Shown here one piece after another: positions 58,731 to 64,000 of a stretch of 64,000 nucleotides of DNA. The translations under genes and the position numbers were made by a program. This DNA comes from Verrucomicrobium spinosum DSM 4136 = JCM 18804 (GTDB lineage Bacteria; Verrucomicrobiota; Verrucomicrobiia; Verrucomicrobiales; Verrucomicrobiaceae): assembly GCF_000172155.1 (NCBI RefSeq), contig NZ_ABIZ01000001.1:2513105-2577104 (forward strand), in the 5' to 3' direction. The notes below the pieces were generated by a model. The model was not told the DNA's origin. It saw only the letters and a list, made by a program, of their open reading frames with translations, and ran no database searches. Position 1 is the first letter of the stretch. Every line of letters starts with the position of its first letter.

Positions 58731-58928
58731 TCACGGAGAGGCTTCCCAACAGACGATGGAACTGGCGGGGATGACGAGAGGCTCCTGGCCATCCGTCTCG
58801 AATCGCAGTTTCCCCTGAAGAACTCTTACGCGGTGGGCTTGTACCACGCGAAGGGTCCCGTCAGTGAGTGTCAGTTCGTAATGTTTGAGTTCTGGAGTGG
58901 AGTCAGGTTGAATCCCATCACTGGACAT
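58731..58928 (-). CDS. Small protein, unknown
   Basis: 65 residues from the ATG at 58928. A compact beta-rich sequence with good amphipathic pattern, 'HYELTLTDGTLRVVQAHRVRVLQGKLRFETDGQEPLVIPASSIVCWE', which reads like a small SH3-like or 'YjfA'-type barrel. Upstream residues in the open frame (to 59132) do not look protein-like. No family recognised. No RBS. Confidence 0.5.
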   Translation of the reverse strand: MSSDGIQPDSTPELKHYELTLTDGTLRVVQAHRVRVLQGKLRFETDGQEPLVIPASSIVCWEASP

Positions 58929-59150
58929 AGACCGTCGGAAGCCGGAGGTGTAGCGGTGTATGTAAGATACCCTGTGCGCTGAGCCTCCTGGCCGGGCGCA
59001 ATAGTAACGCAAAGTCGGGGCAAGGGAAGGGGATTTTTTGGTGAGGTTTCTGGAACCAAGGGGCGCCGGGGCGATGAGCGCTTCTTGATCAGGGATCCCC
59101 GTGGGGACACCGAAGGCAAAGATGGGCTGCATGGCATTTGCGGCCTTGGG

Positions 59151-59876
59151 TTAGATGGCTTTCTGCTTGGGAGGACCGGGACTGTGGAGATAAAACAAGA
59201 AAAACAACCCGGCGATGGTGATGGGGTAGTACCAGCCCAGATAGCTGTTCAGGAGAATGGAGAGAAAGCTCAAAGAATCCAGATAGGACCAGATGGAGAG
59301 AAGGAGCGCCGCGGTGAGGAAGATGCTGATGAGCACGAGCGGACGGGATGGTCGATTGTGGGACCGTTGGGAGAGGAAACAAGCCAGGCCGGCGGCGAGG
59401 ACGTTGGTGCCGGAGAAGATGCGCAGGTCGATCATCAGTGCCTGGAGGGTGTTTTTGTAGTGGCTGCGGATGTGTTCCTTGATCGCTGCAATCTTGTCGG
59501 AGAGGGGAAGGGCTTTCTTTTTGATCGCGGTGAGAGCCCGGTCTGCGGTGGCTCTGAGCGAGGGCTGGCTGCCGTCGCCCGTCGGTGAGGGGGGAGTTGA
59601 GGTGATGTTGAGGATGTAGTTCTTGGGGTTGACCCGGAAGCTGGCGATCTCAGTCTCGATGGCGGTGGCTTGTGCCGGAGTAAGGAGCTTTTGGGCCAGG
59701 TCCGTTTGCAGGGCCTTCTCGGTCGCATCAAACGCGGGGGTGACAAGTCGCTCAGTCTTGAGGGTGACGTAGTCGCGCGCGTATGCCTCTATGCGTTGCT
59801 GGCCGATGAAGGTATATGCGAAACAACCGGCGAACAGAATGACGAGAACCAGATGCAGGGTCTTTAGAACATGCAT
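59151..59876 (-). CDS. Membrane protein downstream of the ACP-like lipoprotein
   Basis: 241 residues. A first membrane helix ('LHLVLVILFAGCFAYTFIG') is followed by a 130-residue mainly helical segment outside ('ARDYVTLKTERLVTPAFDATEKALQTDLAQKLLTPAQATAIETEI') and three more helices at the end ('GTNVLAAGLACFLS', 'LVLISIFLTAALLLSIWSYL', 'GWYYPITIAGLFFLFYL'). No family recognised. It lies 12 bp after the ACP-like lipoprotein gene and surely forms an operon with it. Confidence 0.75.
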   Translation of the reverse strand: MHVLKTLHLVLVILFAGCFAYTFIGQQRIEAYARDYVTLKTERLVTPAFDATEKALQTDLAQKLLTPAQATAIETEIASFRVNPKNYILNITSTPPSPTGDGSQPSLRATADRALTAIKKKALPLSDKIAAIKEHIRSHYKNTLQALMIDLRIFSGTNVLAAGLACFLSQRSHNRPSRPLVLISIFLTAALLLSIWSYLDSLSFLSILLNSYLGWYYPITIAGLFFLFYLHSPGPPKQKAI

Positions 59877-59888
59877 GTAGCGAGGGGG

Positions 59889-60617
59889 CTAGGGCTGGGC
59901 TTTCGGATGAACCGGCGGGGCTACAGTGCCGGCAGGAGCAGCGGGACGGTTGCGTTGTTCCTTGAACTTGGCGGCATCAGCCGGAGGCATGGCCATCACG
60001 ACAGCTTTGTTTTTGAGCGCAATGCGTTCAGGTTCGGTGAGTTTCTGGCTGAGCTTCTTTGCGGCGGCGGCTTCGAGCGCGGAGAGTTCTGGGACGAAGA
60101 CCAGTTCATACCCTCGCGGGTTGGGGAGCTTGCTGAGGTCTTGATACGCCCCAACCTGGGCGAGGCGCAGCGTGCCGTCGTGGGGTTCGTCGAGCTTCGG
60201 GGACGAAAATCTGGCCTTGGGAGCTTGGGAGACGGTGGCGACGAAGGCTCCGATTGTGAGCCGGGCGGGCAGGGGCGGGGTGCCGGCCGGGGCTTTGATG
60301 GGACCAAGGGCCTCGTCAGGGATGGTGACGTCGAACGCTTCTTCGGTGGCCATCACGATCTCGACGACATCAAGGTCATCGGCACCAAGGGCGGCAAAAG
60401 TCGAGTCTGGATTGATGTTCTCTGGACGAAGGCCGAGCTGCCTGGCGATGATGGCTCGAACTTCGGAAAGGGGGGTGTCCGTTGTAGAGGCAGACTGGGC
60501 AGGGGGGCTCGACGGTGCTGAGGAAGGGCTGGCTGGTGATGAGGGCTTGGGGTTGCAAGAGGTAAGACCTACGGCAAGGAGGGCTATGGAGACACAGGTG
60601 AAAGAGGTTCGAGACAT
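59889..60617 (-). CDS. Lipoprotein with an acyl-carrier-protein-like domain lacking the phosphopantetheine serine
   Basis: 242 residues from the ATG at 60617 (also open to 60644). 'VSIALLAVGLTSC' is a lipoprotein signal, with Cys21 to be lipidated. After a Ser/Pro linker, residues 50-125 match acyl carrier protein: 'VRAIIARQLGLRPENINPDS', 'LGADDLDVVEIVMATEEAFDVTIPDEAL', 'LTIGAFVATV'. The motif GADSLD is here GADDLD; the serine that would hold 4'-phosphopantetheine is Asp81, so it cannot carry an acyl chain in the usual way. The C-terminal 110 residues are Pro/Lys-rich with a helix ('LSALEAAAAKKLSQKLTEPERIALKNKAV'). It is periplasmic or outer-membrane bound, an odd place for an ACP fold. First gene of the two-gene operon. 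Confidence 0.85.
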   Translation of the reverse strand: MSRTSFTCVSIALLAVGLTSCNPKPSSPASPSSAPSSPPAQSASTTDTPLSEVRAIIARQLGLRPENINPDSTFAALGADDLDVVEIVMATEEAFDVTIPDEALGPIKAPAGTPPLPARLTIGAFVATVSQAPKARFSSPKLDEPHDGTLRLAQVGAYQDLSKLPNPRGYELVFVPELSALEAAAAKKLSQKLTEPERIALKNKAVVMAMPPADAAKFKEQRNRPAAPAGTVAPPVHPKAQP

Positions 60618-62476: not shown

Positions 62477-63199
62477 ATGAATCGCCGCGCTCTTATCACC
62501 TTGGCCAGCTCTGGGCTTGCCCCGCTCCTAGCCCCTCAGGCTACCGCAAATGATGTCGCTAACAATCCTGTGTCACCGAACCGCTTGAGCGGCCAGGCGT
62601 GGCTCAAGGCCGTCTTTGAACGTGGGGACTTCATCGTCGCCTATTATTTGCGTGATCCAGAAGACAAGGACTACCGTCCACAACTTCCGGGTGGCGATCC
62701 CTTCGGAAGCGGGGATGGCGGAGCGTGGGCGAATGAGAGGGGCGCCGCATCACCGGAGAAACCTTCGCCGACAGAGACTTCCCGGAGCCTGACGCATAGG
62801 ATCCTGAACACTTCAAACTCGCAACACCCTGTGACGGTTGATGTTGCTGCGCTGATCAGCCGCAAAATAAAAGAAGTTCGCGTGCCTGAGGCTGACGCAG
62901 CACCTCTGGTGGCCGCTCTTCTGGACAGCAAGGAGCTTCTCAATCTGAAGGATTGCTATTTGCCACGGCACCTCGTCCTTTTCTATGATCCCTATGGCCG
63001 GGTGAAAGCGGGGCTGGAGATATGCTTCCAGTGCGAGAGCCTTCGGGTTGCTCCCGCTTTCAGGGAGGGGGCGGCGGTAACGGGTGACCTCCTTGCGGTG
63101 GCGAACCTGTTCGACAAGTTGGGGCTGCCCATTGGGAAGGGGATTTCCTCGCTCAGAGAGTATGAGAAGATGAAGAAATCGGCAGCCGAGAAGGAATGA
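62477..63199 (+). CDS. Exported protein of a family with 'H-L-V-x-F-Y-D' and CxxC motifs
   Basis: 240 residues. Twin-Arg-like signal 'MNRRALITLASSGLAPLLAP'. A low-complexity linker follows, then a domain of about 110 residues: 'ISRKIKEVRVPEADAAPLVAALLDSKELLN', 'CYLPRHLVLFYDPYGRVKAGLEICFQC', 'GDLLAVANLFDKLGLPIGKGISSL'. The RHLVLFYD...LEICFQC signature occurs in uncharacterised proteins of many bacteria; the Cys-x-x-Cys could bind metal or form a disulfide. The next, broken gene is a paralogue whose ATG overlaps this stop (TGATGG). Confidence 0.7.
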   Translation: MNRRALITLASSGLAPLLAPQATANDVANNPVSPNRLSGQAWLKAVFERGDFIVAYYLRDPEDKDYRPQLPGGDPFGSGDGGAWANERGAASPEKPSPTETSRSLTHRILNTSNSQHPVTVDVAALISRKIKEVRVPEADAAPLVAALLDSKELLNLKDCYLPRHLVLFYDPYGRVKAGLEICFQCESLRVAPAFREGAAVTGDLLAVANLFDKLGLPIGKGISSLREYEKMKKSAAEKE

Positions 63200-63830
63200 T
63201 GGAGGCAACCTCCATGGTGGTAAAATCGTCGCATCCTTTGTCCTGCCTGCTTGCTGCCGCAGCTGGTAGCGGGCTGGTGTTACTTGCCGCCTTTCTATCT
63301 CCATCCTCCATCTCCCTTTCGCCGTTCCAGGCGGCGCGGGCGGCCTGATTTGCCCGAAACAGCAACGCGCGACTGGGGGTGGGATCGGATGCCAGATTAT
63401 TCGATTCGCATTTCGAAGACCAACGAGGACGACCTCGGCGTACTGGTAAGTCGGGTTACTCATCAATGTCGTGTGCCGGGTGCCGTCGCGAGAGGGCTTG
63501 TGAGGGAACTCTTGGACAATCAGGTGATCCTCGATGTCGCCAGTTGTTTCACGCCTCGACACCTCATTGTTTTTCATGATCCCTATGGTTCGCCCGTCAG
63601 CGTGTTGGAAATCTGCTCTGCCTGCCGCCAGTATGCCATCATTCAGCTGGGCGGGGGATCTTCTGGCGGTCGCGAAAGTGTTCGCCGGGGCAGGCCTGCC
63701 ACTTGGCCCGGGAATAAGCAGCCTGGAACAGTTTGCAGAGGAGCTGCGGCAGGGCCGGGAGGATCGAGTTCGGTATCAAGACGAACAGTTGGCCGGAGAC
63801 GACGTTAGTGGAGTGTCTGGTTGGCGGTGA
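63199..63830 (+). pseudogene. Frameshifted paralogue of the upstream gene
   Basis: The ATG at 63199 overlaps the previous stop and is preceded by AAGGA. It starts a signal-like segment ('LLAAAAGSGLVLLAAFLSPSS') in one frame until a TGA at 63346. The next frame carries 'VSRVTHQCRVPGAVARGLVRELLDNQVI', 'CFTPRHLIVFHDPYGSPVSVLEICSAC' until about 63655. The third frame carries 'GDLLAVAKVFAGAGLPLGPGISSLEQFAEEL' and stops at 63830. Each piece aligns with the intact paralogue, so two single-base shifts (near 63340 and 63655, the latter at a GGCGGGGG run) broke one gene. Sequencing error remains possible. Confidence 0.8.
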
Positions 63831-64000
63831 GTCTTATAATGGGCCGCTCGTGTACGTTTTGAACCATCTATCCGGACGCTTGACCGCACAAGATATAGTG
63901 AACTTTATGATTGAAGGCGGATAGCATTTTATCGTCCAATCCTCGCGTGCCTGATTCACTTCTGTCTTGAGGCCCATTCTTTAAAACACCCACCTTAAAC
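63831..64000. other. Window end
   Basis: The plus frame running to 63924 ends in a plausible segment ('LVYVLNHLSGRLTAQDIVNFMIEGG') that could be a further remnant. Nothing else is supported. Confidence 0.35.

What the first reader, a model, noticed from the sequence alone, without database searches (positions are those of the whole stretch)
59889..60617. Periplasmic lipoprotein with an ACP-like domain that has lost its serine
Residues 50-125 match acyl carrier protein closely, but the GADSLD motif reads GADDLD, and the protein has a lipobox, so it leaves the cytoplasm. A carrier fold without phosphopantetheine outside the cytoplasm suggests a new use, for instance as a protein-docking module. 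It is coupled to a membrane protein gene of unknown family.
Basis: partly seen in the sequence, partly recalled or inferred. Interest (0 to 1): 0.68.

Follow-up and report, generated by a model that had tools for sequence, protein, structure and literature searches.

The report
Exported lipoprotein with serine-less carrier domain
A bacterium of the Verrucomicrobia encodes a protein that looks exported and lipid-anchored and is built on the fold of a fatty-acid carrier whose attachment serine is replaced by aspartate; six related proteins in the same phylum show the same combination, which suggests that the carrier fold has been re-used outside the cytoplasm, perhaps to hold proteins together.

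Summary
The gene is on the minus strand (59889-60617, ATG 60617). It encodes a signal peptide with lipobox (Cys21), a Pro/Ser-rich linker, an ACP domain (PF00550, E 4e-12) reading GADDLD instead of GADSLD, and an unreported C-terminal domain. AlphaFold and fold comparison give an ACP four-helix bundle (Z 11.9). The ACP and C-terminal parts are under purifying selection within the genus. A search for the Asp motif alone found seven ACP-like proteins in sampled Verrucomicrobiota genomes; all begin with a signal-peptide-like stretch ending in Cys. Five of seven pass a strict lipobox rule, against 0 of 107 control ACPs. The pairing with the membrane gene is not general: 2 of 7. The C-terminal domain is a remote member of a family with no Pfam, NCBIfam, PHROGs or PADLOC match, otherwise seen as small proteins in prophages, plasmids and bacteria. 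Five fused proteins form one clade; two without that domain may be independent. Most likely role (inferred): a membrane-tethered docking module that cannot be acylated. Partner and function are unknown. New variant of a known kind.

The parts
59889..60617 (-). lipoprotein gene, 242 aa from ATG 60617 (251 aa from the alternative ATG 60644)
   Evidence: ORF list and translation; selection within the genus
60555..60617 (-). signal peptide and lipobox, residues 1-21, Cys21 as presumed lipidation site
   Evidence: sequence; lipobox rule; Cys invariant in four orthologues
60483..60554 (-). Pro/Ser/Thr-rich linker, residues 22-45
   Evidence: sequence; pN/pS 0.50-0.72 within the genus for the linker as cut (to about residue 50)
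60225..60482 (-). ACP-like domain, residues 46-131, with an insertion of about 12 residues between helices III and IV
   Evidence: PF00550 E 4.3e-12; AF2 mean pLDDT 79-97 per ten-residue block over model residues 11-90; PDB ACPs at VIA Z up to 11.9; alignment with AcpP
60375..60377 (-). Asp81 codon in place of the phosphopantetheine Ser (GADDLD)
   Evidence: Asp in seven Verrucomicrobiota proteins
59934..60206 (-). C-terminal domain, residues 138-228, remote member of the SPLTExEVxxIRDxA...RGYxDIxPExCWxEW family, lacking that tail
   Evidence: hhalign Prob 97.7, E 2e-12 against the 12-row family alignment; profile hit E 2.1e-5 in this genome
59151..59876 (-). membrane protein gene with no Pfam or NCBIfam match, 241 aa, 12 bases downstream; adjacent but not a constant partner
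   Evidence: distribution

Best explanation
The gene makes a lipoprotein anchored on the periplasmic side of a membrane. After a flexible linker it displays an ACP fold that cannot carry phosphopantetheine, followed by a small domain of an undescribed family. The Ser is gone while the recognition helix (DDLDVVEIVMATEEAFDVTIPDE) stays close to that of AcpP, so I propose that the fold is kept as a protein-docking surface: a tethered adaptor that recruits another envelope protein, not an acyl carrier. Shown here: the sequence, the fold prediction, Asp for Ser, the recurring lipobox, selection within the genus, and recurrence in the phylum. Inferred: actual export and lipidation, which membrane, absence of any acyl group, docking as the function, and the partner.
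For: ACP family and fold. Asp81 and the lipobox Cys invariant in four orthologues, the others at 82, 69 and 46% identity to the window's. Within the genus the ACP and C-terminal parts are conserved (pN/pS 0.13-0.35 and 0.05-0.23) while the linker drifts (0.50-0.72). A pattern search for GxDD[L/F]Dx[V/I/M]E, which does not ask for export, gave seven distinct ACP-like proteins (six from 228 order genomes, one more from 377 phylum genomes), all with a signal-peptide-like start ending in Cys. Controls: 79 of 80 IMG/VR ACPs keep Ser, and 0 of 107 control ACPs (those 80 plus 27 from Verrucomicrobiota) have a lipobox. Precedent for ACP as a structural piece: paired with LYR proteins in respiratory complex I, there with its 4'-phosphopantetheine (PMC8762328, passages seen); chains from MukBEF and from the Ycf2-FtsHi motor are among the fold matches.
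Against: No partner gene is constant: neighbours differ between lineages, though the two congeners share most of theirs. Nothing shows export or lipidation. Two of the seven (BvORR034, G258) fail the strict lipobox rule and pass only on a relaxed reading. The AF2 alignment held 37 viral ACPs (36 with Ser, L178 with Asp) among 40 rows, which pulls the model towards ACP; with three orthologues only, the model failed (pLDDT 36). Against G038 synonymous sites are saturated (pS 0.78-0.83 over the gene), so pN/pS of 0.46-0.50 there says little. The lipo-ACP domain is less acidic than AcpP (12 acidic residues against 22), so it may not bind partners in the AcpP way. One Asp-ACP in a viral contig (L178) has no lipobox, so Asp does not imply export. 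The architecture is rare: the C-terminal profile found 2 of 387 phylum genomes and 5 of 239 order genomes.
Confidence: 0.5

Rival explanations
1. A non-covalent lipid binder: the four-helix bundle keeps a hydrophobic cavity that holds a free acyl chain, lysolipid or lipoprotein acyl group in the periplasm, without phosphopantetheine.
For: The ACP fold and most of the helix II core are conserved. Tethering by a lipid would place the bundle near the membrane (inference).
Against: Nothing in the gene neighbourhoods that I read points to lipid transport. In known ACPs the chain is held through phosphopantetheine (established knowledge).
Confidence: 0.17
2. An accessory or immunity-type protein: the C-terminal domain is the working part, kin to small phage- and plasmid-borne proteins, and the ACP part is only a spacer or decoy that brings it to the periplasm.
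For: The C-terminal part has the lowest pN/pS in all three genus pairs. Its relatives are small proteins in plasmids, a Shewanella phage and IMG/VR contigs. In the order the domain profile matches 14 of 189 genomes; G000, G065, G066 and G477 among them have only the fused form.
Against: No toxin or effector gene stood out beside the relatives whose neighbours I read: L059-L062, L072, L074; a type 44 toxin-domain gene is annotated about 5 kb away on the Pantoea plasmid. No PADLOC match. G244 and G258 have the lipo-ACP without this domain.
Confidence: 0.17
3. Not exported: translation starts inside and the protein is a cytoplasmic, inactive ACP paralogue that may compete with AcpP for its enzymes.
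For: The recognition helix is close to that of AcpP. An Asp-ACP without a lipobox exists in a viral contig (L178).
Against: A signal-peptide-like start with Cys recurs in four orthologues and in three further Asp-ACPs although the rest of the N-terminus has diverged. Between Cys21 and Val53 no Met, Val or Leu column is invariant among the four orthologues, so no shared internal start is seen.
Confidence: 0.08
4. A decaying paralogue without function.
For: Sporadic occurrence: 4 of 68 genomes of the family.
Against: Open frame, with pN/pS 0.05-0.35 in the two domains within the genus, and an orthologue at 46% identity that keeps the whole architecture.
Confidence: 0.03

Closest known systems
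Type II acyl carrier protein AcpP (PF00550, NCBIfam TIGR00517)
   Same: Fold; helix II; 43% identity to the genome's own AcpP over the aligned domain
   Different: Asp in place of the attachment Ser; signal peptide and lipobox; Pro-rich insertion between helices III and IV; extra C-terminal domain; scores below the TIGR00517 cut-off (57.6 against 70.45 bits)
ACP as a structural subunit (NDUFAB1 in complex I, ACP in MukBEF, ACP in the Ycf2-FtsHi motor)
   Same: ACP present in a large complex; chains from MukBEF and Ycf2-FtsHi are among the fold matches
   Different: NDUFAB1 carries acyl-phosphopantetheine (PMC8762328, passages seen) and is not a bacterial lipoprotein; here the Ser is gone and the protein has an export signal. 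The state of ACP in MukBEF and Ycf2-FtsHi was not looked up
Small SPLTExEV...CWxEW proteins of prophages, plasmids and bacteria (members tested gave no Pfam, NCBIfam, PHROGs or PADLOC family)
   Same: The C-terminal domain is a remote member
   Different: The window copy lacks the RGYxDIxPExCWxEW tail and is fused to a lipo-ACP

Membership tests
Acyl carrier protein (functional, PF00550) | Sequence over the curated Pfam cut-off | tested here: met
   46.6 bits against 20.8
Acyl carrier protein (functional, PF00550) | Four-helix ACP bundle | tested here: met
   AF2 helices, mean pLDDT 79-97 per block over model residues 11-90; VIA Z up to 11.9 over 75 residues; the alignment rows favour this result
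Acyl carrier protein (functional, PF00550) | Ser that carries 4'-phosphopantetheine | tested here: not met
   Asp in the window and in all six relatives
Acyl carrier protein (functional, PF00550) | Cytoplasmic location beside its enzymes | tested here: inconclusive
   Signal peptide and lipobox by sequence speak against it; location itself not measured
Bacterial lipoprotein | Signal peptide with lipobox Cys | tested here: met
   GLTSC at Cys21; Cys invariant in four orthologues
Bacterial lipoprotein | Diacylglyceryl-Cys at the mature N-terminus | not testable with these tools
   needs labelling or mass spectrometry
SPLTExEV...CWxEW domain family | Profile similarity over the LTxxE core | tested here: met
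   hhalign Prob 97.7 over 61 columns; profile hit E 2.1e-5
SPLTExEV...CWxEW domain family | RGYxDIxPExCWxEW tail | tested here: not met
   absent from the window, BvORR106, BvORR034 and G038; a form of it is present in G477

The most novel reading that the evidence does not exclude
Verrucomicrobiota have, possibly more than once, turned acyl carrier protein into an exported, lipid-anchored adaptor by replacing the phosphopantetheine Ser with Asp and adding a lipobox. This would be an extracytoplasmic class of ACP that works by binding proteins alone.
Probability: 0.4. Interest if true: 0.68.

Novelty: new variant of a known kind. Interest (0 to 1): 0.52.

Why it matters
ACP is among the best-studied carrier proteins, and I know of no ACP domain described on the outside of the cytoplasmic membrane (recall; the paper searches showed none in their listings, which were capped). 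A set of Ser-less ACP lipoproteins offers a clean test of what the fold can do without its prosthetic group. It also warns annotators: PF00550 passes its cut-off here, so such proteins are liable to be named acyl carrier or phosphopantetheine-binding proteins although they have no Ser to carry it. The C-terminal domain adds an uncatalogued family found on prophage-like contigs and plasmids.

Tried and rejected
Structure. The first AF2 run, on the full protein with three orthologues, gave pLDDT 36 and was not used. The second used 37 of the 80 viral ACPs as alignment rows. In a trial alignment eight rows of the small C-terminal-domain proteins were laid over the ACP part by MAFFT, so they were dropped. 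The C-terminal domain was modelled at block pLDDT 65-80 and no fold match to it is claimed; the fold comparison covered model residues 6-95 only.

Motif matches that are not ACPs. One search gave 24 places in 23 of 228 genomes, of which 6 are ACP-like. One search gave 24 places in 24 of 377 genomes, of which 4 are ACP-like (3 already seen). The rest lie in unrelated proteins or antisense frames. The pattern sees only Asp in that motif, so other Ser replacements were not surveyed, nor were other phyla.

Other leads. Second ACP hits in G018 and G013 proved to be Ser-containing ACPs without a lipobox by eye, and no ACP was made out at G043:C268. In one search, 63 of 68 genomes matched; I read the frames of 26 listed ACP loci besides the orthologues, not those of every match. 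The genome-contig scan confirmed 4 loci: the two congeners and two partial matches, L043 (63 residues) and L044 (27 residues), not examined further. One origin of the seven: not rejected (p-AU 0.55) but not shown; one search used 54 rows, 43 of them viral, one search used 83. The Fisher value printed counts 7 of 7 although the strict rule passes 5 of 7, so I do not use it. PHROGs, PADLOC and PDB sequence searches gave nothing for members of the C-terminal family; one hit, in G620, covers 44 residues inside a 723-residue frame and is doubtful.

Papers. Searches found no paper; one found one unrelated; others listed 20 of 58, 15 of 875, 12 of 16 and 10 of 85. None of the listed titles and abstract starts is about a lipoprotein ACP. 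Only passages of PMC8762328 were read.

Full report
What is there. The gene lies on the minus strand, 59889-60617, in an 8.22 Mb one-contig genome. By its size and by its congeners Verrucomicrobium sp. BvORR106 and BvORR034 I take it to be Verrucomicrobium spinosum or a very near relative; the species name is an inference. G066 and G065 have contigs of the same lengths as the BvORR106 and BvORR034 records and are taken to be those genomes. The protein starts MSRTSFTCVSIALLAVGLTSC, a signal peptide with the lipobox Cys at 21. A Pro/Ser/Thr-rich linker follows, then an ACP-like domain with GADDLD at the attachment site, then a C-terminal domain.

The ACP domain. Pfam PF00550 matches at E 4.3e-12, above its cut-off. 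NCBIfam ACP models match below their cut-offs (best 59 of 71 bits). The best-scoring solved sequence is 2ehs, E 8.5e-11, the ACP of Aquifex aeolicus. Against the genome's own AcpP ([26 protein letters not shown]) the identity is 43%, with one residue fewer in loop 1 and about 12 more, Pro-rich, between helices III and IV. AlphaFold2 on residues 40-228 with 40 rows gave a four-helix bundle: block means of pLDDT 91-97 for model residues 11-60, 79 and 86 for 61-80, 94 for 81-90. The 50 Foldseek matches listed are, by their titles, carrier proteins or complexes that contain one. VIA-align gives Z 11.9, rmsd 1.6, 75 residues for the best. Since 37 of the 40 rows were viral ACPs (36 with Ser, one with Asp), the model says that the sequence fits the fold; it is not an independent discovery of the fold.

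Orthologues. Asp81 and the lipobox Cys are invariant in all four. In the 68 genomes of the family, only these four show a match that covers the C-terminal part, and the Asp pattern gave ACP-like proteins in the same four family genomes. Within the genus pN/pS is 0.13-0.35 in the ACP part, 0.05-0.23 in the C-terminal part and 0.49-0.72 in signal and linker. Against G038 synonymous sites are saturated and the ratios (0.46-0.50 over the gene) carry little weight. This looks like a working gene.

Recurrence. I searched for the Asp motif GxDD[L/F]Dx[V/I/M]E in DNA, without asking for a signal peptide: 228 genomes of the order and 377 of the phylum (overlapping sets). Reading the frames gave seven distinct ACP-like proteins: the four above, G477 (a gene cut by contig ends), G244 and G258. 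All seven begin with a signal-peptide-like stretch ending in Cys. By the strict lipobox rule five of seven pass; BvORR034 (no K/R in the first seven residues) and G258 (Tyr at -3) pass only on a relaxed reading. Controls: 79 of 80 ACPs from IMG/VR contigs have Ser and one (L178) has Asp without lipobox (the search patterns allowed Ser or Asp at that place). Of 107 control ACPs (those 80 and 27 verrucomicrobial ones, many near copies) none has a lipobox. In these samples Ser-to-Asp and a lipobox-like start go together in Verrucomicrobiota, but L178 shows that Asp alone does not imply export.

One origin or several. The five with the C-terminal domain form a clade at SH-aLRT 98-99 (the Ser/Asp column was left out). 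In G477 the two halves lie on two contig ends, C29 and C91, which I take to be one gene. G244 and G258 fall elsewhere in the free tree. Their lipo-ACPs end without the domain; G244 has no match to it at all and G258 has it in a separate 224 aa protein. One clade of all seven is not rejected, p-AU 0.55. About 80 columns cannot decide it; G258 is a long branch and the three Verrucomicrobium rows have odd composition.

The C-terminal domain. A profile of the four orthologues found 2 of 387 phylum genomes and 5 of 239 order genomes, the fifth being G477. The G477 protein led to other verrucomicrobial genomes (7 of 286 in the class, two of them the fused form and one, G620, doubtful), to 50 plasmid records, 48 of them Pantoea, to a Shewanella phage (two records of one phage) and, through an alignment, to 16 IMG/VR loci. 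The shared pattern is PSLxxLLxxExxKGSPLTExEVxxIRDxA...RGYxDIxPExCWxEW. hhalign joins it to the window's domain at Prob 97.7, E 2e-12, over 61 columns. A profile of these matches 14 of 189 genomes of the order, of which G000, G065, G066 and G477 have only the fused form. Members run against Pfam, NCBIfam, PHROGs and PADLOC gave no significant family. The window's copy has lost the RGYxDIxPExCWxEW end. The neighbours of the small proteins that I inspected gave no function.

The membrane gene. 59151-59876 starts 12 bases after the lipoprotein gene and matches no Pfam or NCBIfam family. The pair is kept in BvORR106. BvORR034 lacks it and has the next gene directly behind; G038 lacks it too. G244, G258 and G477 gave no match at E 0.01 (no positive control among those three). 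In 67 family genomes only G000, G066 and G034 have it, and in G034 the gene before it is not an ACP. So 2 of 7 lipo-ACPs have the pair: a possible partner, not a defining one. Upstream neighbours also differ: a BNR-repeat (sialidase-like) gene in the window, an autotransporter-like gene in both congeners, a sulfatase-like gene in G038, an autotransporter-like gene before and a parB-like gene after G244's, small unnamed ORFs and an IS30-like transposase near G258's, and large vWA/BatA-like genes before G477's. These names, other than BNR, are my reading of the sequences, not tool hits.

How it may work. The Ser is gone, so the usual phosphopantetheinyl transfer to Ser cannot take place (established knowledge), and the periplasm has no ACP enzymes that I know of. 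What remains conserved is the ACP core and an AcpP-like helix II, the face by which ACPs bind partners (established knowledge), although the domain is less acidic than AcpP (12 acidic residues against 22). ACP is used as a structural piece elsewhere, for example paired with LYR proteins in complex I, though there with its prosthetic group (PMC8762328, passages seen). I therefore favour a tethered docking module, at about one half. A non-covalent lipid binder and a protein whose working part is the C-terminal domain are the main rivals.

Verdict. Observation confirmed, interpretation partly supported. It is an unusual variant of a very well-known fold, recurrent in one phylum, with a clean set of tests and no known partner.

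Noticed in passing
G000:C1 about 305341-310843 (L006, L008-L010): Short ORFs in which ACP-like segments stand in permuted order: a helix II-III-IV segment first (MGLDSVELVMAVEKEF...), then a helix I segment ending DFVRDLGLD. They look like circularly permuted ACPs.
   Followed up: no
58731-59132 (-): The ORF downstream of the membrane gene shares its first residues (MQPxFAxGVPTGIPDQxAL) with a 323 aa gene in BvORR106, less closely with a 322 aa gene in BvORR034, and then differs, as if an internal deletion had fused it to a following gene.
   Followed up: no
L178 (IMG/VR contig): A viral ACP-like protein with GADDLE and no lipobox: an Asp-ACP without export signal, 1 of 80 viral ACPs.
   Followed up: partly
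L059, L060, L061-L076, L212, L219, L228, L230: A small-protein family (SPLTExEVxxIRDxA...CWxEW) in IMG/VR contigs, plasmids and bacteria whose tested members match no Pfam, NCBIfam, PHROGs or PADLOC family; in G258 it is the N-terminal part of a 224 aa protein and in G518 two copies lie in one 202-residue frame.
   Followed up: partly
62477-63199 and 63251-63924 (+): Two neighbouring stretches encode similar segments (PRHLVLFYDPYG / PRHLIVFHDPYG ... LEIC), apparently a tandem duplication; the first has no Pfam family, and the second is split over frames.
   Followed up: no
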